IMG/VR virus record: IMGVR_UViG_3300027720_000695
Coordinates: 1 to 20,982 of that record
DNA: 20,982 bases
Strand: one strand, 5' to 3'
Origin: a virus
Made by a program: the position numbers and the translations under genes. Numbering within the stretch: the first letter of the stretch is position 1; the number at the start of each line of letters is the position of its first letter. The notes under the pieces were generated by a model, which searched no databases, was not told the origin of the DNA, and was given only the letters and a program-made list of their open reading frames with translations. Positions 1 to 20,134 of the stretch are shown piece after piece.

Positions 1-49
1 ATGGTGATGCGCCAGGAGTTTGAGTTGGTGTCGGCGTTGGTGTAGATGT
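1..49. repeat. Direct repeat copy 1 (49 bp, perfect)
   Basis: These bases are identical to 985-1033, 984 bp away. The distance is a multiple of three, so both copies are read in the same frame of the Thr-Pro protein (encoding [14 protein letters not shown] and flanking residues). The copy may extend beyond the left edge. Confidence 0.95.
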
Positions 50-283
50 TGGAGTATCAGTTACCGTAGGTGTTGGAGTTTCCGTTGGAGTTTCAGTTAT
101 CGTAGGTGTTGGTGTCTCAGTTGGAGTTTCAGTTACCGTAGGTGTTGGAGTATTTGTTGGAGTTTCAGTTACCGTAGGTGTAGGTGTTTCAGTTGGTGTC
201 TCACTAACAGTTGGTGTTGGTGTACTAGTTGCAGTCTCACTTACCGTTGGAGTTGGAGTTTCCGTAGGAGTAAGTGGTGGTAA
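1..283 (-). repeat. Thr-Pro repeat linker 2 (coding, continues off the left edge)
   Basis: In-frame repeats code for [15 protein letters not shown]-like units and their variants ([16 protein letters not shown]). Adjacent units differ mostly at synonymous sites and at the E/N/S position. The tract follows the globular domain and probably leads to another one. Confidence 0.85.
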
Positions 284-1348
284 AATATTAAATGTTATTG
301 TTTCAGAGGCTCCCGAAATTCCCCACTGAACAAGGTATGTTCCTGTGTTAACACCCAAAGTAGTAAGTGTCGTACCCGTAAATGTTGCGGTTCCGTTTAA
401 ATTGGTACCCATATAAGGATAAGGAACCATAACACCAAACTCTCTAATACCAAAAAGGTCTCCTGTACTTGAATTTCCATCAACCCCCGTACCACTACCA
501 AATGATGGGTAAGAACTTAAGGTTACTCCTGAGAAAAATTCAACACCCCCCCCTGTTGTTCCAAGACCGTAAACTCCGGAAATTGGATTTATAAAGGTAG
601 TATTTATTGTAAGGATACCTTGGCTTGTTAAACTTGATAGATTTACACTACCCGAACCTGATAGCACAACGTCAGGTCCAACTTCTTGCATTGTAATGAA
701 TAAACCTTGAATAGGTGGTGTTGCGGAAGGTGTTGGTGTATTAGTCGGAGTCTCAGTAATAGTTGGCGTAGGAGTATTAGTCGGAGTTCCAGTAATAGTT
801 GGCGTTGGTGTATTAGTCGGAGTCTCAGTAATAGTTGGAGTTGGTGTGTTAGTTGGTGAATTTGTGGGAGTATTAGTTGGTGTCTGAGTTGGGGTTGATG
901 TTGCCGTTTCCGAAATTGTTGGAGTCGGAGTTGGTGTTGATGTTGCCGTTTCCGAAATTGTTGGCGTTGGCGTTGGAGAACCTGATGGTGATGCGCCAGG
1001 AGTTTGAGTTGGTGTCGGCGTTGGTGTAGATGTCGATGATGTAGAAACAGTGGGTGTTATCGATGGTGTAGGAGTAATAGTTGGAGTTACTGTCGGCGTC
1101 ATAGTTGGTGTTACTGAAATTTCACAACCTTCAGGCCATAATGTTAAATCAATTTCTTCGTAAGAATTTGGTGGAAATGCTGTTGAGAATGATCCTACTA
1201 TATACCATATTTCCCTTGTCTCACCAGGCTTAATTTGATAGTTTTGTACAACTAAATCGTCGGAGCAACGGTTGTAATTGATAACCAATGTTTTCATTGG
1301 CATTACGTTTTTAATACCTACCTTTCTACAGACACAAGATGTGGACAT
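1..1348 (-). CDS. Pro-Thr-repeat surface/fibre-like protein (partial, C-terminus outside window)
   Basis: An open minus-strand frame of 449 codons starts at ATG 1348 and runs off the left edge. Four parts are visible. Residues 1-76 form a compact Cys-containing head (C5, C7, C28, C75). Residues about 77-210 are a Thr-Pro repeat linker with units such as [15 protein letters not shown]. Residues about 211-355 form a Gly/Ser/Thr-rich globular domain, and from 356 a second Thr-Pro linker begins. The globular domain contains TGDLFGI, a VPYPYMG turn, LNGTATFTG and [14 protein letters not shown]. From memory this pattern resembles the ectodomain of bacterial PEP-CTERM (exosortase-sorted) proteins. 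There is no signal peptide. The gene follows the major capsid gene after a terminator and has its own TATTTATA element 13 nt before the ATG. I infer a virion surface protein, such as a head decoration or fibre with stiff linkers. Frame and start are firm; function is not. Confidence 0.8.
718..1116 (-). repeat. Thr-Pro repeat linker 1 (coding)
   Basis: Degenerate in-frame repeats code for [12 protein letters not shown]-like units of about 12-14 residues. The sub-unit encoding [12 protein letters not shown] occurs twice in a row, and TNTPTPTIT(E/G)TP occurs three times. Such linkers are usually extended and rigid. Confidence 0.85.
985..1033. repeat. Direct repeat copy 2 (49 bp, perfect)
   Basis: Identical to bases 1-49. 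It lies inside the first Thr-Pro linker, whereas the other copy lies inside the second linker. Identity at third codon positions contrasts with the codon variation elsewhere in the linkers, which suggests recent duplication or recombination. Confidence 0.95.
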
Positions 1349-1427: not shown

Positions 1428-3266
1428 TTATCTCAATTCGTCCAAATTGAATGTTCTAACACCATCAACTGTGATACGTCCGTAGAAACGGTTGTTAACC
1501 ATTTTCTTAGCGTAACGTGTCATGATACCCTTGATAGGGGTAAAGTTGAATGGGTTGTACATAGTTGGAGTCAACTGAAGAGGTACATATGGAGCGTATA
1601 CGTAACCTGTATCCAACAAGCTTGTACCTTTGTGTCCGATCAACACTTGGTTAGCTGGGAAGTATGGGTCACGGTAAACTTGGTATCTACCAGCCAATGT
1701 TCCAACTCTTTCAATACCCATGTTGTACTGATCCTGTTCAGGAGCCGCGTTAGAAACGTGGAAGTACTCAAGGTCGTCAAAGATAGCTGATACTTCTGAA
1801 GATACAACGATCCAGTTAGCACCACCTCTAAGAGTTGATTTATGGATTTGAGCTGAAAGTTGGTTGATAGCTGTGATCAATGTTTGGTTCCAGTCCTTCT
1901 GTGTGTAAGGAGTAGTACCTGAAGAAGTTAATCTCTTCCATCCGTTGTAGTCCCAACGTAGATCCCATGCCGCACCTTTTCTCAAGTCTCTTAAGATTTC
2001 ACGGTCGATTTCAGCCGCCACTTGCTCAGACAACAAAGCTGTCAATTCAGCTTCAGCGTCGATGTTGTGGAATGCTGCAACGTCTTGTGCCAATTCAGGA
2101 GACCATTGAGCTCTAAGTTTTCTCTCTGTAACAGATACTGTTACTGACTCAAGGTCGAAAGAAACTTCACCGATTTGATCTTCGAATTCCAAGCTCTCGT
2201 AGTTTCTGTAAACCGCTACGAACGCGTCAGTGTTACCAGATGTTGATTCGAATGTAGAACCTGTGTAACCGTCAGGTGTAGTTTGACCACACTCAATACA
2301 AACAGGAACTTGTAAATCAACTTCCAAGTAGATGTGACCCGCATTATCACATACGTTATTGTACTGACCACCTGAACCTGAACCAGGCCATGGAGCTGAT
2401 GCAGTACTTCCGTATTCTACAATACCCTTACCGTATCTCTGAGTAACAACTCTGAACAAGTATGGGTTTCTTGTGTTAGCTGAAGTAGTTGTGTTACCTG
2501 TAACACCCAAGATCAAAAGACCTGAAAGGAATTCTTCTGTGTCCATCATGTTACCGTTAGGTCCGATCAATTGACCAGCACCTGCGTTCATGAATCCATT
2601 CATTTTGATAAGAACTTTTCTGTAATTACCATTAGTGTAACCAGAAGGGATTAAGTAACCATCTTCCCAAACTTGAGTAACAGTGTTAGCTGTGATAGCC
2701 GACCATCTACCTTTAGAGTAGTCGAACAATCCTGGAGGATTCAAAGCCGCTTCGTTACCTTCGTAGAACAAGTCATAAAGATCCTTGTTGAATGATGGAT
2801 TATATGTACCAGCATCTACGTCTGTACCGTAACCCTTGTTAGGATCACCTGGGTAGTTACCTGGAGAACCTACAGGAGCGTAGTGATCACCACTACCACC
2901 TGTTGCTCCGTTATAGGTACCACCAGAGTAACCCTGGATACGTGGTACAAAGTAGAACAACTTACCGATAGGTAGGTTCATAGCTTGTACTGATACGATG
3001 TCGTTTGCAAGAAGTTTAGAGAATACTCTTCTTACGATTGGAAAAACTACAGTTTCAAAAGATCCTGAGTCAGAAGTAGAAGAAGCTTCATTGATTAAGT
3101 GTGAAGCTTGGTTTTCATACAACTGTGCGATGTTTTCCTTAAGGTGACCACCAAGACCCTCTAAGAATCCTAATTTGTCCCATTTGTTAATTGTGTCTTC
3201 TTTGATAACTTTCAAATGTTTCATGCCGATGTTACCAACAAGACCACTTTCTAATAATGCACCCAT
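1428..3266 (-). CDS. 23: Major capsid protein, T4 gp23-like
   Basis: This 612-residue protein forms the hexameric lattice of the phage head. T4 gp23-type blocks are FETVVFPIVRRVFSKLLAND with VQAMNLPIGKLFYF at about 70-107, KLRAQWSPELAQDVAAFH followed by DAEAELTALLSEQ near 385-415, and GYVYAPYVPLQ near the C-terminus. The T4 precursor is about 520 residues; the extra length sits in the middle (about 110-380), a Gly/Asn-rich insertion that includes a CIEC pair. INE at 58-60 fits the T4 prohead-protease rule (L/I)-x-E, so cleavage after E60 would remove a propeptide, as in T4. The gene follows scaffold 22 by 22 nt and ends at a strong terminator. No Shine-Dalgarno sequence precedes the ATG; the leader is A-rich. 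A sampled stretch is near 50% G+C, above most neighbours, consistent with codon choice for high expression. Confidence 0.96.
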   Translation of the reverse strand: MGALLESGLVGNIGMKHLKVIKEDTINKWDKLGFLEGLGGHLKENIAQLYENQASHLINEASSTSDSGSFETVVFPIVRRVFSKLLANDIVSVQAMNLPIGKLFYFVPRIQGYSGGTYNGATGGSGDHYAPVGSPGNYPGDPNKGYGTDVDAGTYNPSFNKDLYDLFYEGNEAALNPPGLFDYSKGRWSAITANTVTQVWEDGYLIPSGYTNGNYRKVLIKMNGFMNAGAGQLIGPNGNMMDTEEFLSGLLILGVTGNTTTSANTRNPYLFRVVTQRYGKGIVEYGSTASAPWPGSGSGGQYNNVCDNAGHIYLEVDLQVPVCIECGQTTPDGYTGSTFESTSGNTDAFVAVYRNYESLEFEDQIGEVSFDLESVTVSVTERKLRAQWSPELAQDVAAFHNIDAEAELTALLSEQVAAEIDREILRDLRKGAAWDLRWDYNGWKRLTSSGTTPYTQKDWNQTLITAINQLSAQIHKSTLRGGANWIVVSSEVSAIFDDLEYFHVSNAAPEQDQYNMGIERVGTLAGRYQVYRDPYFPANQVLIGHKGTSLLDTGYVYAPYVPLQLTPTMYNPFNFTPIKGIMTRYAKKMVNNRFYGRITVDGVRTFNLDELR

Positions 3267-3288: not shown

Positions 3289-4779
3289 TTATTTATTGAT
3301 TTTTTGCATAATATCCTTCATTCTCATGAACTGAGGATTCTCATACGTTTTTGACTCAATCAAATTCTGAGCTGAACCTGAAGCTGGTGATTTGTCAATC
3401 TTACCTACTGATTCAGTCACAACATTTTGAGTCGTGTTATTTAGTTCATTCTTGATAGAATTGTAAAGAGACTTTGACTCTTTCAAAGATTCAACGTCGT
3501 CAAATCTTCTAAGTATGTTGATTTTCTCTTGCTTCGTAGTTGTATGTTCTGTAAACAATCTTGTAGCGTAAGCTAAATTAGAATTAAACACAGCAACTTC
3601 ATTCAATTTTTCTCTGAACACGTTAAGAGCCTTACGATATTCATCGTTTTTTTCTCTCAATCTTTGGACTTCATTATTGATAGATTCAACTTTGACCCCG
3701 TTATCACCATAAACGTAGTTACGATTATTGGTAATTCCTTTTCTCAAACCACGACCTTCTTTGGAACCCATTCCGTAAGTTCTAGCAGCTTCTTTATGTT
3801 CACCCTTCTTACGAGTTTCGAATTGAGCATCGTCTCTTCTTGCCTTAGTAGTTTTTAAATCCTTTCCAGCAATTTTTCCGTGCTTCATAGCTTCTCTTTC
3901 GTCTTCACGATCATCATAACCTTGCTTCTTCTTCTTCTTAGCTTCTTCCATCTCCTCTTCGGTGAATTCGAATTTCTTAGGTTTAAGGTTCATACCAACA
4001 CCCTTAGCACTTCCCTTTGGTTCGATTGCTCCTTCCTTAGTTTCAGCCTTAGTTGTTAGTTTAGCTGCCTTGGTGTGACCCATGACAGGTTTGATAGTCA
4101 TTTTTGATTCGGTCATGTCGTCAGAATCTTCATCTTCTTCTTCATCCATTTCGATTTCGTAAACTACCTCATCCATTTCTTCGTCCATTTCTTCAGAATG
4201 CTCAGACTCATTAAAAATGTCTGCAATCATTGCATCCAATTCCTCGTCTGAAATTTCATCTTCTTCAACATCTACGTTCATATCCATTTGCTCATCCATT
4301 TCTTCGCTCATAGAGTCTTCCTCTTCTTCGCCTTCCATTTGAATGATATATTCAACGTCCGCATCTTCATCTTCAATGTGTACTTGATTATCGTCTTGTT
4401 TTACGATAATACCGTCTTCATCACTCATCGCTTTGAAAACTTTCAAGATTTCCTCATCAGATGCTCCTGTAAGATCGATAGGTAGTTCATCTTCTTCCTC
4501 AGAATCGAATTCCATTTCCATTTCATCCTCATCGGAATCCATTTCCATTTCATCATCTTCTTCGTCAGATTCTTCTGAGTCCATGTCCAAATCCAAGATA
4601 TCTTCTTGTTCTTCCATTTCCTCAGCGTGCTCAGCCTCTTTCAGAGACTCTTTTACTAGTTCAGAGATTTCTTGTTTCATTGTCGAAGCAAGTATTCCTT
4701 TTGCATTCTCCGCTACTACTTGTTCCAAATTTTTCATTTGGAGTAGTGCTTCTTCTACTAGAGATTTGTTTTGTGCCAT
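3289..4779 (-). CDS. 22: Prohead core/scaffold protein, gp22-like
   Basis: This 496-residue protein very likely forms the internal scaffold on which the capsid protein assembles. The call rests mainly on position (between protease 21 and capsid 23, as in T4) and on composition; I see no sharp family motif. Residues about 50-222 are extremely acidic (runs of Glu/Asp with Met). Residues 225-345 are Lys/Arg-rich with a KKKKK run. Residues 365-450 look like a coiled coil (VQRLREKNDEYRKALNVFRE). It is much longer than T4 gp22 (about 270 residues), mostly because of the acidic region. Candidate protease sites of the (L/I)-x-E type include LIE at 473-475, fitting a scaffold that is degraded during maturation. 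It is the first gene of the 22-23 unit, with a TATTTATA element upstream. Confidence 0.82.
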   Translation of the reverse strand: MAQNKSLVEEALLQMKNLEQVVAENAKGILASTMKQEISELVKESLKEAEHAEEMEEQEDILDLDMDSEESDEEDDEMEMDSDEDEMEMEFDSEEEDELPIDLTGASDEEILKVFKAMSDEDGIIVKQDDNQVHIEDEDADVEYIIQMEGEEEEDSMSEEMDEQMDMNVDVEEDEISDEELDAMIADIFNESEHSEEMDEEMDEVVYEIEMDEEEDEDSDDMTESKMTIKPVMGHTKAAKLTTKAETKEGAIEPKGSAKGVGMNLKPKKFEFTEEEMEEAKKKKKQGYDDREDEREAMKHGKIAGKDLKTTKARRDDAQFETRKKGEHKEAARTYGMGSKEGRGLRKGITNNRNYVYGDNGVKVESINNEVQRLREKNDEYRKALNVFREKLNEVAVFNSNLAYATRLFTEHTTTKQEKINILRRFDDVESLKESKSLYNSIKNELNNTTQNVVTESVGKIDKSPASGSAQNLIESKTYENPQFMRMKDIMQKINK

Positions 4780-4912: not shown

Positions 4913-5125
4913 TTACTTTTCTACAACCTCATCGATCTTACTTTCAGACACAGATGTGATTCTCCAATCGTGTGGGAAACCAGCATATCTTGTGGTAACT
5001 TTAGCTTCAACGTCAGTTACGTTGAATCCTCTTACGAGTTTTTCTTCTCTGATTTTTTTGATCTTTCCTGTGTTTTCATCGGGTAGATCATAAGTAATTT
5101 TTGCAATAAAATATTTTTCGTCCAT
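4913..5125 (-). CDS. Small DUF4494-like protein (70 residues)
   Basis: This short soluble protein is of unknown role. The layout (FIAKITYD, a charged GKIKKIREE turn, KLVRGFNVTDVEAKV, then a short tail with RITSVSESKIDEV) resembles, from memory, the DUF4494 family of small proteins common in Bacteroidota and their phages. It follows the prohead protease by 17 nt and ends just before a terminator, so it is probably made with gp21. The start is an ATG with an A-rich leader and no Shine-Dalgarno sequence. The family resemblance is tentative; the gene itself is well supported by its tight packing. Confidence 0.75.
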   Translation of the reverse strand: MDEKYFIAKITYDLPDENTGKIKKIREEKLVRGFNVTDVEAKVTTRYAGFPHDWRITSVSESKIDEVVEK

Positions 5126-5142: not shown

Positions 5143-5874
5143 TTATCTGTTTAAATAATGGTTCAATTTATTCAATAAGTCAATAGAGCGGTCCATACCT
5201 TTTCCTGTTGATTGTGAAGAAGATGATATTCTTGCCATTTTTTCTTCTTCCAAGTTTTCTTCAAAGTTGTTTCTGTCTTTTACATCGGTAAAAAGATATG
5301 CACCAGGTGTAGATGGTGATGACACCAAATCAAAACAGATAAGTTCAAAGTCGTCTTGTACTTCGTTTTGTTCTCCAATTTTTTTTAGAGATCCAACACC
5401 ACGTGATGAGATACCTAATGTAACACCTTGACGAAGTAAATTTGCCGCTTGATCACCTTTGGTTGATACAACACCTCTTTCGTGAAAACCTGGTGATGTT
5501 AGAAGTTTTAGTTTACCCATAAGGATATGTCCATCCCACCAAATCTCGGTGATTGCGTGTGACACACGATCCAAATCAATAAGTGATGATTCAGGGTGAT
5601 TGAGTTCAGACAGAGCAATACCCTTGTCGATCATTTTCTTATAGTTTTCAGCCTCTCTCTTGAGGATTCTCTCAGGATATACACGACCGTTTCTGTTGGG
5701 TGTATTGTACTTTTGAAGTACCGCATAGAATTCAAAAGGCTTTGAATAGTCCAACATAGTTTTGTTGGATTCTTCAATTATGTTCTTATTGAAATCATCG
5801 TTTGGCGAGATATGTCCCGCATCCATTTCTATGAGTATACCCTTACCAGTTTCACTCGGACCTAAAATTCGCAT
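5143..5874 (-). CDS. 21: Prohead maturation protease, T4 gp21-like
   Basis: This serine protease cleaves scaffold and capsid proteins in the prohead at (L/I)-x-E sites. The 243-residue length is close to T4 gp21 (about 210). Catalytic candidates are H93 in SELNHPES, S156 or S157 in LGISSRGVG, and D182 in CFDLVSSPSTPGAY, in the His-Ser-Asp order of the herpesvirus-assemblin-like fold used by phage prohead proteases. The N-terminal part holds the conserved YNTPNRNGRVYP segment. The Ser/Lys-rich C-terminus (from about 212) is probably removed or disordered. A TATTTATA element lies 16 nt before the ATG. The gene sits between the 146-residue protein and the DUF4494-like protein, as gene 21 sits beside 68 and 22 in T4. 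Confidence 0.95.
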   Translation of the reverse strand: MRILGPSETGKGILIEMDAGHISPNDDFNKNIIEESNKTMLDYSKPFEFYAVLQKYNTPNRNGRVYPERILKREAENYKKMIDKGIALSELNHPESSLIDLDRVSHAITEIWWDGHILMGKLKLLTSPGFHERGVVSTKGDQAANLLRQGVTLGISSRGVGSLKKIGEQNEVQDDFELICFDLVSSPSTPGAYLFTDVKDRNNFEENLEEEKMARISSSSQSTGKGMDRSIDLLNKLNHYLNR

Positions 5875-5904: not shown

Positions 5905-6345
5905 TTATAGTTCTTTTACTTTTTTTGAAATGGTAAACTCGAAATTGGAGTTTTGCATAAAGTTTTTGTTGTAGATTTCCCTGCAGATTCTCTTGAGAGA
6001 AAATTTGATTTTTGGATCTTTAAAATCTATTTCACAAGCGAGAAAAAAAGTAATTTCTAAATTCATAAAACTTTTTTTTCCAAATGTAATCCCACTAGTT
6101 CTTAGGTCTAAATCAACAATGTAATTTGATTTAAATAATCCTGTGTCGATCATTTCGTACACAGAATTTTTTATGGATTTACTCAGATCTGATACTATTC
6201 TCTCAGGTTTTTCAAATTCTTGTTTTGGCGTCACCCAACTTTGTATATTTAGATATATTGATTTGAGTTGTTTGGCATCAACTGTGCCGTAATTTATCTT
6301 CGCTTCAGGGAACCCTACAATACGCGAAGTTTTGCCTTTTTTCAT
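5905..6345 (-). CDS. Unknown protein in the position of T4 core protein 68
   Basis: A 146-residue protein that I do not recognise by sequence. It is basic at the start (MKKGKTSRIVGFPEAK) and has alternating hydrophobic strands toward the end (IVDLDLRTSGITFG, LEITFFLACEIDF). No signal peptide or membrane helix is evident. It lies directly upstream of protease 21, where T4 carries the 141-residue core protein 68, so a role in the prohead core is a positional guess only. The start at 6345 is an ATG with an AT-rich leader and a weak TATATTTTTA variant of the phage promoter about 30 nt upstream. A sampled stretch is near 27% G+C, lower than the capsid and Clp genes. Confidence 0.8.
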   Translation of the reverse strand: MKKGKTSRIVGFPEAKINYGTVDAKQLKSIYLNIQSWVTPKQEFEKPERIVSDLSKSIKNSVYEMIDTGLFKSNYIVDLDLRTSGITFGKKSFMNLEITFFLACEIDFKDPKIKFSLKRICREIYNKNFMQNSNFEFTISKKVKEL

Positions 6346-6350
6346 ATATT

Positions 6351-6412
6351 ATTTGACATACAAATGTTTATTGTTAATAAAAATATACCACTAAAATGGT
6401 ATTATGTCAAAT
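6351..6412. promoter_or_regulatory. Nested inverted repeats in the divergent bS21 promoter region
   Basis: Perfect 10-nt arms ATTTGACATA (6351-6360) and TATGTCAAAT (6403-6412) enclose 42 bp. Inside are two more perfect inverted repeats: TTTATT-GTT-AATAAA (6367-6381) and ATACCA-CTAAAA-TGGTAT (6385-6402). The region separates the leftward 146-residue gene from the rightward bS21 gene. I infer an operator-promoter region; a structured leader is also possible. Confidence 0.5.
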
Positions 6413-6442
6413 TTTATCAACATCTGTATTATTTAGTAATAT

Positions 6443-6634
6443 ATGCTGATAGTAGAAGTCAAAAATAATAATATCGAAAAAGCACTAAAAGTGCTCAAAG
6501 GTAAAGTTATTAAAACAAAACAATTGAATATTCTCAGAGCTAAAAAAGAATTTCAGAAAAAGTCTGTAAAAAGAAGAACTGAAATTAACAATGCAAAGTA
6601 CGTTCAGTCGAAAAAGGATTCAGAGTCTTACTGA
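6443..6634 (+). CDS. rpsU: Ribosomal protein bS21, phage-encoded
   Basis: This 63-residue protein would be a component of the small ribosomal subunit, near the 3' end of 16S rRNA. The family pattern is clear: MLIVEVKNNNIEKALK at the start, KTKQLNILRAKKEFQKK in the middle, then SVKRRTEINNAKYVQSKKD, matching cellular bS21 along its whole length. It is the only plus-strand gene inside the head cluster. It lies between the positions of T4 genes 67 and 68, and its stop overlaps the convergent 233-residue gene by 7 bp. No Shine-Dalgarno sequence precedes the ATG; a TATTATTTAG stretch just upstream may be part of its promoter. Phage bS21 genes are known from pelagiphage and large metagenomic phages. 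Y53 seems to align with the Tyr that, in Flavobacterium johnsoniae bS21, helps cover the anti-Shine-Dalgarno. Confidence 0.92.
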   Translation: MLIVEVKNNNIEKALKVLKGKVIKTKQLNILRAKKEFQKKSVKRRTEINNAKYVQSKKDSESY

Positions 6635-7329
6635 ATGTTGTTGTAGAGAGCAAAAAGACGAACGTAATTAATTTTACTGTACTCATCTTTTTCTATCTGA
6701 CCGATAGTTTCCTGAAGTTTTGTTTTAGTAACGTCATCTTCACTCTCAACACCGTTGAGAGAATATATTGTCTTGTTCTTTAGTTCGTTATATTCTATCT
6801 CTAAATCTGTATCTTCAGTCATCAAAACTTTTGCCAAATCTGTTTTAGATGATTCGTCTAATGTTTCAATATAATTTGCTAATTGTTTTCCCGCGATGTT
6901 AAAAATAGTTTCAATCGGTAAATTAATTGATTCTTTTACTTGTGGTTTTTGAGTCAGATTTGATATTAAGTTTTTTCTACTTTCAACGGATTCCAAAATT
7001 GTGGTGGGCATTGAGTATACCAAATTGTCAATGTTTTTGTATTTGTTTTCACAAACAACATCTTTAATCCACAAGGAAACTGATGACAAATCTGATTTAG
7101 GTAATATTTTCTCGATCTGTCTCAAAGATTCTGTAATATACAATTCGGCAGTTTCTTTATCCAAACCTTGGTTCTTGTCGAGTTCTGTGTATAGATGAGT
7201 TAAATTACTGACAGCTTTATTCTCCAAAACAAATTTTTTGAAGTTTGCCATATCTTCTTTCATTGTACCTTTCACATAAGAAGATACCAACTTAGACTCT
7301 ATTTTAGATAAAATTTCTCCGAAGTTCAT
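6628..7329 (-). CDS. Unknown protein between portal and bS21
   Basis: A 233-residue, mostly helical and moderately acidic protein without a family that I recognise. No signal peptide, membrane segment or catalytic motif is seen. It follows the portal gene by 24 nt with a TATTTATT element in the gap, and lies where T4 has small prohead-core gene 67. Its length (T4 gp67 is about 80 residues) does not fit simple orthology. The C-terminus (VRLFALYNNIQ) overlaps the end of bS21 by 7 bp in convergent orientation. Role unknown; a head-assembly or core role is inferred from neighbours. Confidence 0.8.
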   Translation of the reverse strand: MNFGEILSKIESKLVSSYVKGTMKEDMANFKKFVLENKAVSNLTHLYTELDKNQGLDKETAELYITESLRQIEKILPKSDLSSVSLWIKDVVCENKYKNIDNLVYSMPTTILESVESRKNLISNLTQKPQVKESINLPIETIFNIAGKQLANYIETLDESSKTDLAKVLMTEDTDLEIEYNELKNKTIYSLNGVESEDDVTKTKLQETIGQIEKDEYSKINYVRLFALYNNIQ

Positions 7330-7353: not shown

Positions 7354-9177
7354 TTAGTTTATCAAATTGCCCAGCACTTTTTCTATTTCACCTAACGAAC
7401 GTCTTCCTTTTTCCAAATCAAGCTCATCAATATTGGTTGATTCTGACGAATCAAAAATCATGTTCATTTTTTTGGTTTTACTTTCAGGGGTTACCTCACC
7501 GGTTGGTGATCCTGTTTCACCACCGGGAGATTCCAAAGGTGTTGCCTCAGGAGAACCAAACTCACCACCACCCTCAATTCCAAACTCTGAAGTCTCAGTT
7601 TCACCTGTGACAGGAGTTTTAGAACCATATAAGTTATCAACAGTATCAAACAAACCTGTTTTAGTAATGACGTTTGGAGTGTTTTGAATTTCTGTAGCAA
7701 CCGCTTTTTCAATCCTTTGTTGTTGTAGGTCAAGTTTGATTTCCTCATCAGAAAAACCTAGTATGTGTTTCTTAGCCCACGATTGTGATACTGGAGCAAT
7801 ACCTTCAATTGGCATTACAGCGTCTTTGTATAACAACATTTTTTCTTTCCAAACATCGATAGTCAACAAATCAGCTTGTTTTGATGGATTTGTCAAACTA
7901 AGTTGGAATGACCCTAATTCATCTTCAAATCCTAACAGGAACAAGTGAACAATAGCGATCTTATTTAGTTCGGCAATCATTGACTTCTGAATACGATTGA
8001 TTGTACGTGCAAAACGAATATCCTGAAGGGATAAGTTTCTTCCATCACCAACAACTTCTTCAAAACCTAAAAATGCTTTTGGAATTCTAAGTGCCGTCAA
8101 TAGTTTCTTTTGAATATATTCGATATCAGCGATCTCAGATAAGTTCTGAGCACCCTGTAATGTTTCGATTGGATTTGGAGCCGAAGGATCTCGAACAGGT
8201 ATAAAAAAATCTTGATCAACCGCCATTTGGTTGAATCTCATATCTACGTTGCCAGTTTTGGGATCTGTAACCATATCCTTTTTGAACTGTGCTGCAAATC
8301 TTTGAACATACGGTTGGATATCACCATCATCCATGTTACCAACATAAACTTTGAACACACGTCTTTCAGGTGCTCTTGAGACACGATAAACTAACATCGC
8401 ATCTTCACCCAAAACTAATTGTTTCCAAATTCTTCTAGCTTTTTCCAGCATTGAAGTACCGTAAGGTAATTTTCTGTCATCACCTAATAATCTAAAATGA
8501 GCAATTTCCCAACTCTTAAATTCGAGTTGTTTGTTTTTCCATGTAAAAGTAAGACTTGATACTTTATCTGAAGTACCGGCTAATCCCGCTCCCGAACTTG
8601 CTCTTCCTCTCATACCAACTTCAACTCTTTCGATCTCGATATTAGGTAATTGAAGACATCCTACAACACCTTTTTCAGGATCTAATTTTAAGAAAACAAA
8701 GTTATCACCATACTTAGACGTATTTCTTGTCCACATTGGTAAGTTAGTATTGATATCCAAAGCGTTGTTAAACAAATCACCCAATACTGCTTTGATCCTT
8801 GGTGAATCAGAATAAATTTGCAACATGTATCCGTTTTCATCTACCGTAGTAGACTCTTCCGCATAGGTATCCAAAGCTGCTGAAATCTCAGGAGTATATT
8901 CCATTGATTCGTAGTCGTAGTATGACGCCAACCTTGTTGGTTCATAATAAACCGCTTGTGAATAAAGGTTATTCTCAATTTTAGCCCATTGTTGAGTTAT
9001 ATATGATGTTTGTCTGGCTTGTAATTTTTCACGTTCATACTCAGCTTTGTCCGTTGTTCTGAGTAGTTCTTTTTTGTCAAATTTGTACGTAGGTACATCT
9101 TGACCCAGTAATGAGTTAGGTCCGAAGGTCTGTGATAACCTCTGCCATATTGTTAAGTTTTTATCTTCTTCCGCCAT
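7354..9177 (-). CDS. 20: Portal vertex protein, T4 gp20-like
   Basis: This 607-residue protein forms the dodecameric ring at the head vertex through which DNA is packaged and ejected. T4-portal-like blocks include YESMEYTPEISAALDTYAEE (about 89-108), the SKYGDNFVFLKLD strand (about 154-166), FIPVRDPSAPNPIETLQGAQ in the stem/crown region, and EYIQKKLLTALRIPKAFLGF. The last 100 residues are Gly/Glu/Pro/Ser-rich (about 520-570) before a final helix, longer than in T4 gp20 (about 520 residues). It follows terminase 17 by 32 nt, so tail genes 18 and 19, which lie between 17 and 20 in T4, are absent from this site. The ATG has no Shine-Dalgarno sequence. Confidence 0.95.
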   Translation of the reverse strand: MAEEDKNLTIWQRLSQTFGPNSLLGQDVPTYKFDKKELLRTTDKAEYEREKLQARQTSYITQQWAKIENNLYSQAVYYEPTRLASYYDYESMEYTPEISAALDTYAEESTTVDENGYMLQIYSDSPRIKAVLGDLFNNALDINTNLPMWTRNTSKYGDNFVFLKLDPEKGVVGCLQLPNIEIERVEVGMRGRASSGAGLAGTSDKVSSLTFTWKNKQLEFKSWEIAHFRLLGDDRKLPYGTSMLEKARRIWKQLVLGEDAMLVYRVSRAPERRVFKVYVGNMDDGDIQPYVQRFAAQFKKDMVTDPKTGNVDMRFNQMAVDQDFFIPVRDPSAPNPIETLQGAQNLSEIADIEYIQKKLLTALRIPKAFLGFEEVVGDGRNLSLQDIRFARTINRIQKSMIAELNKIAIVHLFLLGFEDELGSFQLSLTNPSKQADLLTIDVWKEKMLLYKDAVMPIEGIAPVSQSWAKKHILGFSDEEIKLDLQQQRIEKAVATEIQNTPNVITKTGLFDTVDNLYGSKTPVTGETETSEFGIEGGGEFGSPEATPLESPGGETGSPTGEVTPESKTKKMNMIFDSSESTNIDELDLEKGRRSLGEIEKVLGNLIN

Positions 9178-9209: not shown

Positions 9210-10982
9210 TCAACGTTTTATTCCTCCGAATACCCATAAATATTCTTGATAATCCCTTTTAGTAGGTTGATTTCTATAAGCAGGATTATTATCAAACATT
9301 TGATTTGGAATTTGTGGATTGAAGAATTGTTGTGTTGGCTTTTCATAAGTTTCGACCGTCCAAGATTCTAACATACTTTTGGCCATCTCATTTACCTTAT
9401 TTAGTTGGGTGAATGATGTTTCAGCAACATATACCGCCATGGCAAGTGCCATAATTAAGTCGTCGTGTTGTCCTTTCATGTGATCGGGTCGTCCATTGAT
9501 ATAAACAAATGTGTTCATTTCACTTAACAATCTTGTAGATCTAACTTTCATTCCGTGTCTTAAGGCTTCTTCAAAAGCTGCGATAATTTGAACACGTTTC
9601 TGACTAAAATTTAAACCTGGTATTTTGTCTCTAACTTTGGGATCAAACTTCCATTTATTTCCGTATTCAACGCCCTCAACATATAAATCTTTATAATCTA
9701 ATTCTTGTAATTTCCTAGCGGTTGCCACACCCATACCACCGGTAATATCTATAACAATAAATGCTGAATACATCGTCGCCCACTTAAATGCAATTTCAGC
9801 CAATACATCAGGTGGTAGTTTACCCAAGTATTCGGCAACTTGTTCTCGTTCATCAAAATCATAAATTTGAATTGTAGAAAAGTCCTCCGAATCACCCCTT
9901 GAAACGTCAACTCCCATAATATATTTGTGACCCATTTCAGGTTCTTTCCAAATCCAAAAACCACCACTCATCATTTTTCCAGAAGGATCTTTGATAGTAG
10001 TTTCAGTAATGTTTTGAATCAAGTTTGAATCGAATACGTTGTCACCAGATCCTAAGAAATTACACTCCAATTCTTGTGCAACTTTTCTTTTATCGTATTT
10101 AAGTTTTTTCACCATAGCCTCAAACCATGACGATGAAGGTTTATAACCTTCTTTGAATTTTGATACTATTTCTTCAAAATTTCTTTCAAATGGATTGATC
10201 TTTGAGTAATCTAATAAAACTTCTTTGTCATCATATTCTTCTCGATTGAGAAAATAATGAATTATATCTTTTGTTTTTACTAAATACAAATCTTTTGTAT
10301 AACGAGGATCACGATACCAATACATTTCGGTGATTTTGAAGTCGTTCATACTACGTAAGGCTTGATCGTAAATTTCGTAGTAAATAGGATCATATCCATT
10401 AGGGGTGGAGATGACAATTACCTTACCACCCGTAGACAAAGATGCCATACAGGCAGCCCAAAAGTCTCCATCGGCATCAATAAAGGCTGCCTCATCAAAG
10501 ATAAGAATAGTAGGTGAGTAACCACGAAGTGCGTCTTTTGAAGTTGCCACAGCCTTTATTTCACACCCATTTGAAAGTTTGTAGTGTTTGGCGGCGTTTT
10601 TATCAGGAGAAAACCCAACACCAACCCAATCGGGCCATTGGGCAGTAAATTCTCTTATTTTGTTTGCAAATTCAATAGACGTATCTTGTTTGTTAGCAAT
10701 AATCAAAACCTTTTCTGGTTTGTTTTTTCTAGCAAAAACAACTTTTTTACTTGCCCAAGCCGCTGTCACTGTTGATACACCCGCCTGTCTATACTTCAAA
10801 GCTATGTTTTCGTTGTACGCATCATAGTCTTCTACCAATCGGACTTGATCAGGAAATAGTTCTAATGGAACATATCGTGATTGAGTATTATCGTAGGTCT
10901 GTAGATAGGTTTTTAAAGCGTAGGCAGTACTTGTCATACACTTTGAATACTCTAAGAGTAATTGTTCTTTACTTAAACCCAT
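9210..10982 (-). CDS. 17: Terminase large subunit, T4 gp17-like
   Basis: This 590-residue motor ATPase and headful nuclease docks on the portal. The ATPase half has a P-loop-like YRQAGVST at 64-71, Walker B ILIFDEAAF with D163 and E164, and coupling motif VISTPNG near 190-196. The nuclease half has D359 in MGVDVSRGD (with D364 nearby), D412 in VIDITGGMG, and D507/D508 in GQHDDLIMALA, matching the acidic residues of the RNase-H-like terminase nuclease. The P-loop lacks the usual Lys before Ser/Thr (Val instead); terminases are known to use variant P-loops with a basic residue nearer the start, and R65 could serve. It follows the 431-residue gene by 8 nt, so translation is probably coupled. Confidence 0.95.
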   Translation of the reverse strand: MGLSKEQLLLEYSKCMTSTAYALKTYLQTYDNTQSRYVPLELFPDQVRLVEDYDAYNENIALKYRQAGVSTVTAAWASKKVVFARKNKPEKVLIIANKQDTSIEFANKIREFTAQWPDWVGVGFSPDKNAAKHYKLSNGCEIKAVATSKDALRGYSPTILIFDEAAFIDADGDFWAACMASLSTGGKVIVISTPNGYDPIYYEIYDQALRSMNDFKITEMYWYRDPRYTKDLYLVKTKDIIHYFLNREEYDDKEVLLDYSKINPFERNFEEIVSKFKEGYKPSSSWFEAMVKKLKYDKRKVAQELECNFLGSGDNVFDSNLIQNITETTIKDPSGKMMSGGFWIWKEPEMGHKYIMGVDVSRGDSEDFSTIQIYDFDEREQVAEYLGKLPPDVLAEIAFKWATMYSAFIVIDITGGMGVATARKLQELDYKDLYVEGVEYGNKWKFDPKVRDKIPGLNFSQKRVQIIAAFEEALRHGMKVRSTRLLSEMNTFVYINGRPDHMKGQHDDLIMALAMAVYVAETSFTQLNKVNEMAKSMLESWTVETYEKPTQQFFNPQIPNQMFDNNPAYRNQPTKRDYQEYLWVFGGIKR

Positions 10983-15268: not shown

Positions 15269-16021
15269 TTATTCAGTCTCTTGATTTTCTAAAGATAATT
15301 TTTTATCCATCAGTTTATTTTTGAAATTGTACAGTTTGTCAATGTATTGGTTCCTTCTCAAGAATTTAAAAACCAAATTCTCATAAGAAAATTCACCATC
15401 TTTTTCCAAACCTGAACTTCTATATTTTTTTAATTTTTCTTTGAATTTTTCTATTTTTCCTAAGGCAGTATCCAAATCATCATCAACAATATCTTCCATC
15501 AAGTTATCGATGGTTTCCATAACCCCTTTGACTTTTTTCATCAAAAAGTCTTTGTCAATTTTAACATTTTCCTTTTCGGGTTTGTCAACCCACTGATCAA
15601 ATAACACAGAATATACACCAGTTGAGAAGTGAACTTCATTGATATCCTCAGCATACAACTCAACCTCATAACCTTTTACAGTTATATTGTGAGTGGTATT
15701 AAATAAAGTTTTTTTGAGTTGGAATAGTTCTTTGTAAACATCACGATCTTTTGGATCAAACTGAGAAAAATCTACATACATGTGTAAATCAATATCTGAA
15801 AACTCAGACCAGTTGAAATTCGCCAAAGATCCTGTGAATCTAATGTCATCAACAAATAAATCTTCACCCAAAAAATCCATAAATTCACCAGCAATTTGTA
15901 ATAATGCAACACGGATTCCGTTTTTCAATACAGGGGTGTCAGTATCAACATCATTCCAAATCTTGGGGTTCAAAGTCTCCTTTGTACCAAATGACATCAA
16001 TATTTCAGAGTATTTGTCCAT
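15269..16021 (-). CDS. Nucleotidyltransferase-fold protein
   Basis: A 250-residue protein with the Pol-beta-type nucleotidyltransferase signature. FTGSLANFNWSEFSDIDLHM contains G64-S65 followed by the metal-binding pair D76 and D78, and a possible third acidic residue is in GYEVELYAED (E119 or E121). The C-terminal half (about 145-250) is helical and charged. The substrate is unknown; relatives transfer nucleotides to RNA, small molecules or proteins. Similar GS...DID proteins occur in large phages without a known role. It follows the KTSC gene by 24 nt, and a TATTTATA element ends only 4 nt before its ATG. The fold is fairly sure, the activity is not. Confidence 0.85.
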   Translation of the reverse strand: MDKYSEILMSFGTKETLNPKIWNDVDTDTPVLKNGIRVALLQIAGEFMDFLGEDLFVDDIRFTGSLANFNWSEFSDIDLHMYVDFSQFDPKDRDVYKELFQLKKTLFNTTHNITVKGYEVELYAEDINEVHFSTGVYSVLFDQWVDKPEKENVKIDKDFLMKKVKGVMETIDNLMEDIVDDDLDTALGKIEKFKEKLKKYRSSGLEKDGEFSYENLVFKFLRRNQYIDKLYNFKNKLMDKKLSLENQETE

Positions 16022-16045: not shown

Positions 16046-16291
16046 TTAAGGGAGTTTGTTGTATTTGAATGCTTTGGAAATTTTGGTGGTAAAGTATTTT
16101 CCTTGCGATTCCGCTAGTCTGAATTCCGCATAGACGTTATGAGGTACATTTTCATATTCATAACGGGTTCCATTTTTGAACTCCGCAATCAACTTCTTAG
16201 TCGCCGTATCGTATTCGGTTCTATTGATGTTTGATGATTCAATATCGTTGATAATTTTTGTTCCTTCTATTGTTTGTGATTTTACGGCCAT
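16046..16291 (-). CDS. KTSC-domain protein
   Basis: An 81-residue protein made almost entirely of a KTSC domain: SSNINRTEYDTATKKLIAEF, then NGTRYEYENVPHNVYAEF and AESQGKYFTTKISKAFKY. KTSC domains are small, sometimes fused to Lys-tRNA synthetase-like or nucleic-acid proteins, and are frequent in phages; the molecular role is not established. The start was placed at ATG 16291, one base after the stop of the 100-residue gene. A longer frame exists upstream, but it would overlap that gene almost entirely and is unlikely. Confidence 0.85.
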   Translation of the reverse strand: MAVKSQTIEGTKIINDIESSNINRTEYDTATKKLIAEFKNGTRYEYENVPHNVYAEFRLAESQGKYFTTKISKAFKYNKLP

Positions 16292-16292
16292 G

Positions 16293-16595
16293 TTACAAAG
16301 GGGTTTTGAGATCAACTCTATACAATAAATTTGAAAAGTAATCATCAAAATCAGAATTACTATTTTCATAATCCATAAGACCAAACCTACGAGCATCACT
16401 CTTCAACTTTTTCAAGTCGTATATTACCCTCTCACGTTGCAGGTACATTGAAGGGGTCATACCCTCACCTTTTTGTAACTGACGGTCTTTAACACCATGG
16501 TCGATAAACATTTTTCTCATAAGGATGTATCCACGGACAACATCCATCAAATCATTTTTTTTGATTTTTATAAATTTTCTTAATTGTGGTGTCAT
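16293..16595 (-). CDS. Unknown small basic protein (100 residues)
   Basis: Starts MTPQLRKFIKIKKNDLMDVV and is basic and helical. A second region (SMYLQRERVIYDLKKLKSDA) could be a coiled or nucleic-acid-binding helix; the end is acidic. Not recognised. The frame stays open to a TTG at 16610, but that stretch coincides with the TATTTATA element, so ATG 16595 is the better start. It is the first gene after a terminator and is followed after 1 nt by the KTSC gene. Confidence 0.75.
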   Translation of the reverse strand: MTPQLRKFIKIKKNDLMDVVRGYILMRKMFIDHGVKDRQLQKGEGMTPSMYLQRERVIYDLKKLKSDARRFGLMDYENSNSDFDDYFSNLLYRVDLKTPL

Positions 16596-16641: not shown

Positions 16642-17112
16642 TTACATTTTCAGTTTTTTGAGTTCCTCTCGGATTTCAATTGCTCTTTCAAAGTTATGAT
16701 CTGAAATCACTTGTTTGAGTTCATTCTCAAGTTTTTCGATCTCCTCTTGAGAGTTTTCAAGTTTCTTCATTCTATCACGAATGGCGATTGCCAGTTCGTA
16801 ATCTTCATTTTCAATTGATCGTTGGAGTTCGTATTTGAGTCTATCAGTACTGACCTCTTGTTTTTTATTAGATTTGAACATATTAGTCATCATATCGTCA
16901 TCAAAACCTGAAGAACGAACAAAGCTGGTAATTACAATTTTACCATCATCAGATGTGAATGTCTCTTTATTCCATTCACCATTTTTATCTTTTCCCTTTT
17001 CCACATTATTTTTTCCGTGGATACCAAATCGTCCACCAAATGGATTATTACGACCAAACATATTATTTAGTTCATTGAACAGGTCATCGAAAGAATCACT
17101 TTTTCCAAACAT
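16642..17112 (-). CDS. Twin UVR-motif protein, possible McsA-like Clp partner
   Basis: A 156-residue protein. Residues 1-30 are Phe/Gly/Asn-rich (MFGKSDSFDDLFNELNNMFG). Residues 45-72 form a small strand-rich part (FTSDDGKIVITSFVRSSGF). Two tandem UVR motifs follow: LKYELQRSIENEDYELAIAI with RDRMKKLE (92-119) and LENELKQVISDHNFERAIEI with REELKKL (128-154). UVR motifs occur in UvrB and UvrC, in the ClpC middle domain, and in McsA, the ClpC/McsB partner of Firmicutes. No UvrB or UvrC catalytic domain and no McsA zinc fingers are present. It is divergent from the ClpC-like gene, which itself has a UVR-like middle segment, so an adaptor or regulator role for Clp is a reasonable inference but unproven. 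The gene ends at a strong terminator. Confidence 0.82.
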   Translation of the reverse strand: MFGKSDSFDDLFNELNNMFGRNNPFGGRFGIHGKNNVEKGKDKNGEWNKETFTSDDGKIVITSFVRSSGFDDDMMTNMFKSNKKQEVSTDRLKYELQRSIENEDYELAIAIRDRMKKLENSQEEIEKLENELKQVISDHNFERAIEIREELKKLKM

Positions 17113-17301: not shown

Positions 17302-19296
17302 ATGATTGAATCAATGGACGATAACGATAAGGGAGCCAAATCCCGTCAAAAACAAAGTGGAACTCCCGTCTTGGATAACTTCTCTAAAGACCTAAACAAG
17401 ATGGCCGCTGAGGGTAAACTAGATCCCGTCATTGGACGTGAGATGGAAATTCACCGAATTGCCCAAATCCTATCCCGTAGGAAAAAGAATAACCCAATTA
17501 TCGTGGGTGAACCTGGTAGTGGTAAAACCGCTATCGTGGAGGGATTGGCCAACAAGATCGTACAAGGTGACTGCCCCCGAAATCTTCGTGACAAACGTCT
17601 TGTCCTATTGGACCTTACTTCAATTGTCGCGGGTACCAAGTACCGAGGACAGTTTGAGGAGCGTATGAAGGTTATCATCGAAGAATTGTCTGAGAATCCA
17701 GACATCATCGTCTTTATTGACGAAATCCACACGATCGTAGGTGCTGGTAACGCATCTGGCTCGATGGATGCATCCAACATCTTCAAACCCGCTCTTGCCC
17801 GTGGTGAAATCCAATGTATTGGAGCAACCACTCTTGATGAGTACCGTACCAATTTTGAAAAAGACGGAGCACTTGAGCGTCGATTCCAAAAGGTTAGTAT
17901 TGATTCTCCCTCAAAGGAAGAAACTCTACTTATCCTTCAACAATCAAAATCACGTTATGAAGATTTCCACAAGGTCCTTTACACCGAAGAGATCTTGGAG
18001 ATGTGTGTTAATCTTGCGGATCGTTACATCACCGATCGTGAATTTCCCGATAAAGCATTTGATATCTTAGATGAGGTAGGAGCTCGTAGTCAAGTGGAGG
18101 TAAAGATACCCGAGTCAATTGAGATCCTCAAAAACAAAGCGGCAGAACTTAAACAACAGAAGTTAGATGTTGTAAAAAAACAAGACTACGAACAAGCCGC
18201 TGAGATTCGTGATAAGGAGAAGAAACTTTTGGAACGTTTGGAGAAGGAAAAGGTTAAGTTCGAAAAAGAACAAGCCGAAAACAAAAAACCAATTGATCCC
18301 GAGTTGGTTCTTACAGTGGTGGCATCCATGACCAAAATCCCTGTAAACAAATTATCTGTTGATGACAAAGCGGCACTTGTTGGTTTGGAAGAGTCCCTCA
18401 AGCAACAGGTCATTGGTCAGGACGATGCTGTTAGGAAAATTGCTCGAGCAATGCGTCGGAACCGTCTTGGAATCAAAGACCCAAACAAACCAATTGGTTC
18501 GTTTATCTTCTTGGGTTCAACTGGTGTTGGTAAAACACACTTGGCAAAAGAACTCGCCAAACAAATCTTCGGTTCGGCCGACAACCTAATCCGAGTGGAT
18601 ATGTCCGAATATCAAGAGAAACACTCCGTATCGCGTTTGATCGGAGCACCTCCAGGATACGTAGGTTATGATGAGGGTGGTCAACTCACCGAGCAGGTGA
18701 AGAACAAACCATATTCGGTGGTTCTTTTTGACGAGGTTGAAAAGGCAAATAAGGAGATCTTTCATACCCTTCTTCAAATGTTGGATGAAGGTCATCTTAC
18801 TGACTCTTTGGGTCGTAAAATCAACTTCAAAAACACCCTCATTATTATGACCTCAAACATTGGTGTGAAGAAACTTCAAGACTTCGGTACTGGTATCGGT
18901 TTTGGTGGATCTTCATACTCAACGGAGGAACAGAAGAAGGAAATCTTGAAAAAGGAAATGAAGAATTACTTCTCACCTGAATTCATCAACCGTATTGACG
19001 AAACCATTATCTTCAATTCTTTGGATCAAGAATCCCTGAAAAAGATCGTATCTATCGAACTCAACAAGTTGATGAAACGTCTTGGTGATCTAAAACTAAA
19101 CTTCAGTTTTGATGATAAACTCGTAGAACACATCTCAAAAGTAGGGTTTGATGAAGTGTACGGTGCCAGACCGATCAAACGAGCAATTCAAGATGAAGTG
19201 GAGGACTTGGTATCCGAATCAGTCTTGTCTGACATTGTAAAAGAAGGTGGAACATACACCATTTCAGTGGAAGATGAGAAAGTGGTTATCAAGTAA
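17302..19296 (+). CDS. clpC: ClpC-like AAA+ unfoldase lacking the N-domain
   Basis: A 664-residue double-ring ATPase of the Hsp100 family, which unfolds proteins and normally feeds ClpP. AAA1 has Walker A GEPGSGKT (69-76), Walker B IIVFIDE (D140, E141) and LERRF (191-195). The short middle domain (about 275-325) has a UVR-like core DYEQAAEIRDKEKKL. AAA2 has GSTGVGKT (405-412), VVLFDEVEKA (D477, E478), MTSN, NRID and GARPIKR. A GIGF tripeptide loop (531-534) within DFGTGIGFGG fits the ClpP-docking loop. The wording TPVLDNFSKDLNKMAAEGKL and the GTGIGFG loop are typical of Bacteroidota ClpC. Host ClpC is about 840 residues; the roughly 150-residue N-domain that binds adaptors is missing, and the protein begins with only 20 linker residues. 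No clpP is in the window. It has a host-type promoter and a terminator that it shares with the convergent gene. Confidence 0.95.
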   Translation: MIESMDDNDKGAKSRQKQSGTPVLDNFSKDLNKMAAEGKLDPVIGREMEIHRIAQILSRRKKNNPIIVGEPGSGKTAIVEGLANKIVQGDCPRNLRDKRLVLLDLTSIVAGTKYRGQFEERMKVIIEELSENPDIIVFIDEIHTIVGAGNASGSMDASNIFKPALARGEIQCIGATTLDEYRTNFEKDGALERRFQKVSIDSPSKEETLLILQQSKSRYEDFHKVLYTEEILEMCVNLADRYITDREFPDKAFDILDEVGARSQVEVKIPESIEILKNKAAELKQQKLDVVKKQDYEQAAEIRDKEKKLLERLEKEKVKFEKEQAENKKPIDPELVLTVVASMTKIPVNKLSVDDKAALVGLEESLKQQVIGQDDAVRKIARAMRRNRLGIKDPNKPIGSFIFLGSTGVGKTHLAKELAKQIFGSADNLIRVDMSEYQEKHSVSRLIGAPPGYVGYDEGGQLTEQVKNKPYSVVLFDEVEKANKEIFHTLLQMLDEGHLTDSLGRKINFKNTLIIMTSNIGVKKLQDFGTGIGFGGSSYSTEEQKKEILKKEMKNYFSPEFINRIDETIIFNSLDQESLKKIVSIELNKLMKRLGDLKLNFSFDDKLVEHISKVGFDEVYGARPIKRAIQDEVEDLVSESVLSDIVKEGGTYTISVEDEKVVIK

Positions 19297-19543: not shown

Positions 19544-20134
19544 TTATTCTTCTCTTAATAACCAAGTTGTTAAGATGTATTTATCGTTGGATACCGGTAC
19601 ATGACCTCTGTGAACATATGGCCAAGGTGCTGGCCAAACAATAAATGTTCCTTTAGTGGGTTTTACCATCAAACTTTGATGTAGGAACTCTGTTTCTCCA
19701 CCCTCTTCGACATCATTGAGGTAAAACATAACGGCGAAGAGTCTGTTATAAAACTCACTATATTCACCCTCGGTGTGAAAAGACTTAAAGTGACCCACAC
19801 CTTTTTCATATCTTTGTAATTGCCACACAGGGTAGTATGTTCCCTTACCAAAAAGATATTCGTGAGTGTTAAACTCATCTGTAGTTCTAAATCTACGAAC
19901 ATAAAGATCGATCTTTTCGTTAGCTGCATCAACAACCTGATTAACCAATTCTTCAAGTTCAGGAACTTTCATAATGTCAAAATCGGTAGTATCTTTGAAT
20001 CTTTTATCTAAACCACTGGCAGTTATCCCTTGGTGATGATAATCTTCGTATTCGTGAAACGCCTCAATAAGACGATCACATAACTCCTCAGATAGAGTCC
20101 CAGGGTAAACTCCGATTGTATCCTTGACGTTCAT
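19544..20134 (-). CDS. 2-oxoglutarate/Fe(II) oxygenase, prolyl-4-hydroxylase-like
   Basis: A 196-residue cupin-fold oxygenase that would couple 2-oxoglutarate decarboxylation to hydroxylation of an unknown substrate. Visible parts are VYPGTLSEELCDRLIEAF at the start, then QRYEKGVGHFKSFHTEGEY with iron ligands H120 and E122 (an HxE form of HxD), LFAVMFYLNDVEEGGETEF typical of phage P4H-like enzymes, the distal H175 in PYVHRGH, and K185 in NDKYILTTWL for 2-oxoglutarate. Related enzymes are frequent in marine T4-like phages. The N-terminus overlaps the end of the peptidase gene by 47 bp; no later ATG would keep the conserved start, so the overlap seems real. The transcript ends at the terminator at 19523. 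Confidence 0.9.
   Translation of the reverse strand: MNVKDTIGVYPGTLSEELCDRLIEAFHEYEDYHHQGITASGLDKRFKDTTDFDIMKVPELEELVNQVVDAANEKIDLYVRRFRTTDEFNTHEYLFGKGTYYPVWQLQRYEKGVGHFKSFHTEGEYSEFYNRLFAVMFYLNDVEEGGETEFLHQSLMVKPTKGTFIVWPAPWPYVHRGHVPVSNDKYILTTWLLREE

What the first reader, a model, noticed from the sequence alone, without database searches (positions are those of the whole stretch)
6346..6634. Phage ribosomal protein bS21 in a phage with no Shine-Dalgarno signals
Seen: a full bS21 gene, rightward and alone, inside a leftward head-gene cluster, and gene starts in this window that lack Shine-Dalgarno sequences. Known: in Flavobacterium johnsoniae, bS21 with bS6 and bS18 covers the anti-Shine-Dalgarno of 16S rRNA, and ribosomes without bS21 regain Shine-Dalgarno use. 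Inference: the phage copy, one residue shorter near the N-terminus but keeping the Tyr (Y53) before VQ, could enter host ribosomes and alter which mRNAs are translated, favouring phage messages without Shine-Dalgarno sequences.
Basis: partly seen in the sequence, partly recalled or inferred. Interest (0 to 1): 0.88.

Follow-up and report, generated by a model that had tools for sequence, protein, structure and literature searches.

The report
Phage bS21 gene without host-like leader
A virus of Bacteroidota bacteria carries its own copy of the small ribosomal protein bS21, an arrangement published in 2022; the added observation is that the viral gene lacks the long ribosome-pairing signal that Flavobacterium uses to throttle its own copy, so the virus may be able to supply ribosomes with its version without that brake.

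Summary
Window 6443-6634 (+) encodes a 63-aa Bacteroidota-type bS21, reversed inside a T4-like head cluster, with the ASD-stacking tyrosine conserved (Y53 = Y54 of F. johnsoniae). Genes here and in two large related contigs use Shine-Dalgarno (SD) motifs no more than shuffled sequence. This is not new: Chen et al. 2022 described the same reversed bS21, cluster, conserved aromatic residue and ribosome-substitution hypothesis.

What I did not find in the papers searched: 80/80 Flavobacterium-type rpsU genes carry a very strong SD (-18.4 kcal/mol or stronger), the signal for bS21 autoregulation. None of 75 distinct phage bS21 genes does (median -1.2, strongest -6.4). Instead a TATTT(A/G)-like box sits about 12 nt before the ATG in most syntenic phage lineages, beside a promoter shared with the divergent neighbour, predicting a 0-3 nt leader. 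Best reading: the phage supplies bS21 to host 30S subunits outside the host's feedback loop. Incorporation, leader length and host are inferred. Many other Flavobacteriales also lack the rpsU SD, so escape from feedback depends on the host.

The parts
6443..6634 (+). bS21 (rpsU) coding sequence, 63 aa, ATG start, Y53 = Y54 of F. johnsoniae
   Evidence: start codon and first Met conserved in all 70 distinct phage homologues
6430..6435 (+). TATTTA box (-13 to -8 from the bS21 ATG), putative -7-like promoter element predicting a start near 6440, i.e. a leader of about 3 nt
   Evidence: box at -16..-9 in 14/21 (strict) or 20/21 (loose) syntenic bS21 clusters against 13-17% of other genes; TSS inferred from -7 geometry in PMC6847099
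6406..6411 (.). GTCAAA / TTTGAC element shared by the divergent pair; reads TTTG (-33-like) for the leftward neighbour
   Evidence: TTTG to TA-box offset of 24 nt in 47 of 58 phages with a scored box; TCAAA to bS21 box 23-25 nt in 58 of 66
6346..6442 (.). 97-nt intergenic region between divergent CN146 and bS21
   Evidence: 76-107 nt in 71 relatives
6376..6387 (-). TATATTTTTATT, -7-like box of the CN146 promoter
5905..6345 (-). CN146, conserved neighbour of unknown function, divergent from bS21; predicted alpha/beta fold
   Evidence: conserved in synteny; model pLDDT 92.9, one viral fold relative, no PDB match at E<=0.001
6628..7329 (-). CN233, conserved neighbour of unknown function, convergent with bS21 (7-nt overlap at the stops)
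7354..9177 (-). portal protein (gp20-like)
   Evidence: PF07230 E=3.3e-75
9210..10982 (-). terminase large subunit
   Evidence: PF03237 E=3.1e-14
5143..5874 (-). prohead protease
   Evidence: phrog_207 E=3.6e-43
1428..3266 (-). major capsid protein (gp23-like)
   Evidence: PF07068 E=2.9e-73

Best explanation
A late-expressed phage copy of Bacteroidota bS21. It is expected to enter host 30S subunits and, through its conserved aromatic residue, keep the 16S 3' tail tucked away, so that subunits are complete and able to initiate on SD-less messages during virion production. Shown here: the family, the conserved site, strong purifying selection, the fixed reversed position, and the absence of the host-type rpsU SD. 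Inferred: that the gene has its own promoter giving a 0-3 nt leader; that it is therefore not held back by the host's SD-dependent bS21 feedback; and that, once in ribosomes, it closes the feedback on host rpsU so that phage bS21 progressively replaces host bS21 in new or repaired subunits.
For: Family and Tyr. Synteny in nearly all loci with portal identity of 68% or more. SD contrast: 80/80 Flavobacterium-type rpsU at -18.4 kcal/mol or stronger against 75 phage genes with median -1.2 and strongest -6.4. Conserved box close to ATG. Published biochemistry: F. johnsoniae ribosomes lacking bS21 initiate faster on SD-rich rpsU and more slowly on SD-less mRNAs (PMC9976891). Phage bS21 is transcribed late with head genes (PMC9723584). 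A Pelagibacter phage bS21 enters E. coli ribosomes (cited in PMC9723584).
Against: No expression, TSS or ribosome data for this phage. The window's own box (ATTATTTA, 6428-6435) matches the host -7 consensus TAHHTTTG at only three of its six near-invariant positions. Leaderless mRNAs are rare in flavobacteria (5.5% in F. psychrophilum). The host is unknown: no phage-like bS21 in 395 Bacteroidota genomes, no convincing DNA match in 399 genomes of the Flavobacterium family. Only 4 of 29 rpsU genes in my order sample have a strong SD (sample biased to best HMM matches), and the phage clade's nearest host branches lack a strong one. bS21 is absent from some syntenic relatives, so it is optional.
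Confidence: 0.5

Rival explanations
1. Specialised-ribosome model (Chen et al. 2022, and the first reader): the phage bS21's divergent N-terminal helix changes which mRNAs are chosen, favouring phage transcripts.
For: Phage-specific conserved residues in the N-terminal part: V23 (69/70), I24 (65/70), K27 (65/70), Q28 (70/70), L19 and G/S21, against mainly F, D, G, T, Y/F and R in hosts; Chen reports the same divergent region.
Against: Host and phage messages are both SD-less (and published work), so SD status cannot discriminate; no alternative phage-message signal was demonstrated here.
Confidence: 0.25
2. Simple dosage: the phage adds bS21 because host bS21 becomes limiting or is lost during infection; the coding differences are drift or host-range adaptation, with no regulatory meaning.
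For: Aromatic site conserved, late expression, gene optional in some relatives.
Against: The phage-specific signature is nearly invariant across 70 diverse proteins, which drift would not give.
Confidence: 0.2
3. Extraribosomal role: bS21 acts as an RNA-binding partner in virion assembly or is packaged, given its place among head genes.
For: Fixed position beside portal and protease genes; Chen suggests possible packaging.
Against: Conservation of the 16S-tail-contacting aromatic residue argues for a ribosomal role.
Confidence: 0.05

Closest known systems
bS21-encoding huge phages of freshwater Bacteroidetes, clades a-e (Chen et al. 2022, PMC9723584)
   Same: bS21 reversed within TerL/portal/protease/MCP, flanked by two hypothetical genes; aromatic residue at 54; divergent residues 21-28
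   Different: The paper's text does not discuss SD content or promoters of the phage gene. It reports the co-transcribed neighbour missing from two bS21-less outgroups; here CN146 is kept in bS21-less relatives L222, L340-L344 and L346, and CN233 in all of these except L346. It saw no bS21 below ~70% TerL similarity; here bS21 persists at TerL identities in the 60s.
F. johnsoniae rpsU autoregulation by bS21-lacking ribosomes (McNutt et al. 2023, PMC9976891)
   Same: Same protein family and same Tyr54 site
   Different: Flavobacterium rpsU has an extended SD (about -20 kcal/mol); the phage gene has none
735-kb huge phage LR756501
   Same: Encodes a related bS21 (51.6% identical)
   Different: Its bS21 keeps an SD (AAAGGAGGATAA, -12.1 kcal/mol) and nearby genes use SD somewhat (14% vs 7.5% shuffled)

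Membership tests
Ribosomal protein bS21 (Bacteroidota type) | S21 domain over family cut-off | tested here: met
   PF01165 41 bits (cut-off 27); TIGR00030 29.9 (cut-off 28.95)
Ribosomal protein bS21 (Bacteroidota type) | aromatic residue at F. johnsoniae position 54 that stacks on A1534 | tested here: met
   Y53 in window; Y58/H8/F4 in 70 phage proteins
Ribosomal protein bS21 (Bacteroidota type) | phylogenetic place among Bacteroidota bS21 | tested here: met
   one clade 100/98 beside Flavobacteriales-type hosts; the host sister branch is weak, 80/48
Ribosomal protein bS21 (Bacteroidota type) | assembly into 30S subunits | not testable with these tools
   needs proteomics or cryo-EM
bS21-encoding Bacteroidetes phages (Chen et al. 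2022) | bS21 on the opposite strand between two hypothetical genes inside the TerL/portal/protease/MCP cluster | tested here: met
bS21-encoding Bacteroidetes phages (Chen et al. 2022) | Bacteroidetes host | tested here: inconclusive
   bS21 phylogeny and SD-lessness agree; nearest cultivated TerL hits are Flavobacterium phages at 27.7% identity; no host link found in genomes
SD-dependent rpsU autoregulation (McNutt et al. 2023) | extended SD upstream of rpsU, below -13 kcal/mol | tested here: not met
   window 0.6; 75 phage genes, none stronger than -6.4 kcal/mol
Leaderless mRNA class | mapped 5' end at or next to AUG | not testable with these tools
   only predicted from the box position

The most novel reading that the evidence does not exclude
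The phage copy has replaced the host's SD-controlled rpsU leader with a (near-)leaderless start, making phage bS21 insensitive to the host's bS21 feedback; once assembled into subunits it closes the feedback on host rpsU, so ribosomes are converted to the phage version without any need to degrade host bS21.
Probability: 0.28. Interest if true: 0.7.

Novelty: new member of a known kind. Interest (0 to 1): 0.42.

Why it matters
The phage bS21 and the substitution hypothesis are published. The regulatory contrast makes that hypothesis testable by a route I did not find in the papers searched: if phage bS21 is made outside the host's SD-based feedback and then shuts host rpsU down, ribosome takeover needs only continued bS21 exchange or new assembly, and can be measured with existing rpsU'-gfp reporters in Flavobacterium. 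It would also be a case of a virus exploiting a known specialised-ribosome circuit.

Tried and rejected
GTCAAA as a bS21-specific promoter element: rejected as the sole reading, because in the opposite direction it is TTTG at the canonical distance from the CN146 box and TTTGAC survives upstream of CN146 in bS21-less L222 and L346. CN146 as a bS21-dependent partner: not supported, since it is kept without bS21. Phage Clp protease as the remover of host bS21 (a phage protease was speculated in PMC9976891): the Clp ATPase is also in bS21-less G827, so there is no link. Host from DNA matches in 399 genomes: only weak AT-rich matches, no convincing protospacer. Host from phage-like bS21 in 395 Bacteroidota genomes: none at E<=1e-10. 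CN146 function by fold: one uncharacterised viral relative only. Papers on Flavobacterium phage late promoters: none found. I did not model the protein on the ribosome: no coordinate tool was at hand.

Full report
What is there. The window is a 20,982-base virus record. The coding sequence is 6443-6634 (+), 63 aa, a bS21 by Pfam, NCBIfam and PDB sequence search. It lies reversed in a leftward T4-like head cluster: TerL 9210-10982, portal 7354-9177, CN233 6628-7329, [bS21], CN146 5905-6345, protease 5143-5874, DUF4494 4913-5125, an acidic protein 3289-4779, MCP 1428-3266.

Prior art. Chen et al. 2022 (PMC9723584) describe this arrangement in Bacteroidetes phages: opposite strand, two hypothetical flanking genes, conserved aromatic residue 54, divergent N-terminal helix, late transcription, and the hypothesis that phage bS21 substitutes into host ribosomes and selects phage transcripts. 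McNutt et al. 2023 (PMC9976891) show that F. johnsoniae rpsU carries an extended SD and is autoregulated by bS21-lacking ribosomes, and discuss phage bS21. Here, bS21 in this place is found in nearly all relatives with portal identity of 68-100% whose fragment covers the site.

Is it a working bS21? Across 70 distinct phage proteins, position 54 is Y (58), H (8) or F (4); hosts of Flavobacteriales type are Y74/H2/F1. The phage proteins share a near-invariant signature L19, G/S21, V23, I24, K27, Q28 that hosts almost never have. Most pairs show dN far below dS. The tree puts all sampled phage proteins in one clade (100/98) on a long branch (0.81) beside Flavobacteriales-type hosts; it rests on 64 columns only, the host sister group is weak (80/48), and the phage set was collected by similarity to the window's bS21 or portal.

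SD use. Gene starts in the window and in two related contigs (293 genes) use SD motifs at about shuffled levels, while the same method recovers T4's SDs.

The contrast that matters. I compared the pairing energy of the upstream region with the 16S 3' tail. All 80 Flavobacterium-type rpsU genes lie between -18.4 and -22.8 kcal/mol. The 75 distinct phage bS21 genes have median -1.2 and strongest -6.4. In a 30-locus phylum sample 63% of host rpsU genes are at -13 or stronger; in a 29-locus order sample only 14% are. These two samples are the best profile matches, not random draws, and the published figure for Flavobacteriales is about 80%. So the absence of the SD is a real difference from Flavobacterium, but not from all Flavobacteriales.

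What replaces it. A box TATTT(A/G) starts at -13 to -11 before the bS21 ATG; at the level of 21 syntenic 75%-identity clusters, 14 (strict) or 20 (loose pattern) have it at -16..-9, against 13% and 17% of 336 other genes (binomial p 3e-8 and 1e-14; these treat clusters as independent, and the pattern was chosen after seeing the data). Other genes in these phages have the same box mostly at -22/-21, with a secondary peak at -12/-11. In some of the latter a terminator-like GC-rich repeat and T-run precedes the box directly, which supports its reading as a promoter. In F. johnsoniae the -7 element occupies -12 to -5 with 4-5 nt to the start site (PMC6847099); by that geometry the bS21 leader would be 0-3 nt. 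In the window the box matches the host consensus weakly, so a phage-modified polymerase may be involved. A GTCAAA/TTTGAC element lies 23-25 nt from the bS21 box in 58 of 66 and, read the other way, TTTG lies 24 nt from the CN146 box in 47 of 58 scored. I read it primarily as the -33 element of CN146, within a compact divergent promoter.

Natural knock-outs. Relatives L222, L340-L344 and L346 keep the cluster and CN146 but lack bS21; one of their contigs (G827, 163.9 kb) has no S21 match at E<=10. bS21 is therefore a removable cassette, and CN146 does not depend on it. I cannot tell which flanking gene Chen called bS21_CN.

How it most likely works. Inferred: phage bS21 fills bS21-lacking 30S subunits late in infection, keeps the 16S tail sequestered so subunits initiate on SD-less messages, and by removing bS21-lacking ribosomes turns down host rpsU where that gene has the extended SD. 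The phage gene, lacking the SD, is outside that loop. Each inferred step has a test in the next-steps field. The published specialised-ribosome hypothesis remains open and is not excluded by anything here.

Noticed in passing
window 17302-19296 (+) and 16642-17112 (-): Phage Clp ATPase (ClpA/B/C-like, two AAA domains) next to a UVR-motif protein with partial McsA similarity; related contigs G003 and G826 also encode ClpP. The ATPase is also in bS21-less G827.
   Followed up: partly
related loci, e.g. window 15269-16021, L008 13461-13757, L206 405-743: A subset of phage genes other than bS21 has the TATTTA box only ~12 nt before the ATG, some directly after a terminator-like repeat, suggesting a wider class of near-leaderless genes.
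   Followed up: partly
window 5905-6345 (-): CN146 leader carries a conserved ATAAAC/T motif 22-28 nt before its ATG in nearly all relatives, and the protein model (pLDDT 92.9) has no solved relative.
   Followed up: partly
window 1-1320 (-): Left end encodes a protein with long Thr/Pro-rich repeats ([11 protein letters not shown] type), cut by the record end.
   Followed up: no
window 16046-16399, 19544-20134, 20088-20921 (-): KTSC-domain protein, 2OG-Fe(II) oxygenase and M20-type peptidase.
   Followed up: no
window 1428-3266 (-): The 612-aa gp23-like capsid protein's best-scoring match to the Gp23 profile covers only residues 355-599; most of the N-terminal half lies outside that stretch.
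   Followed up: no
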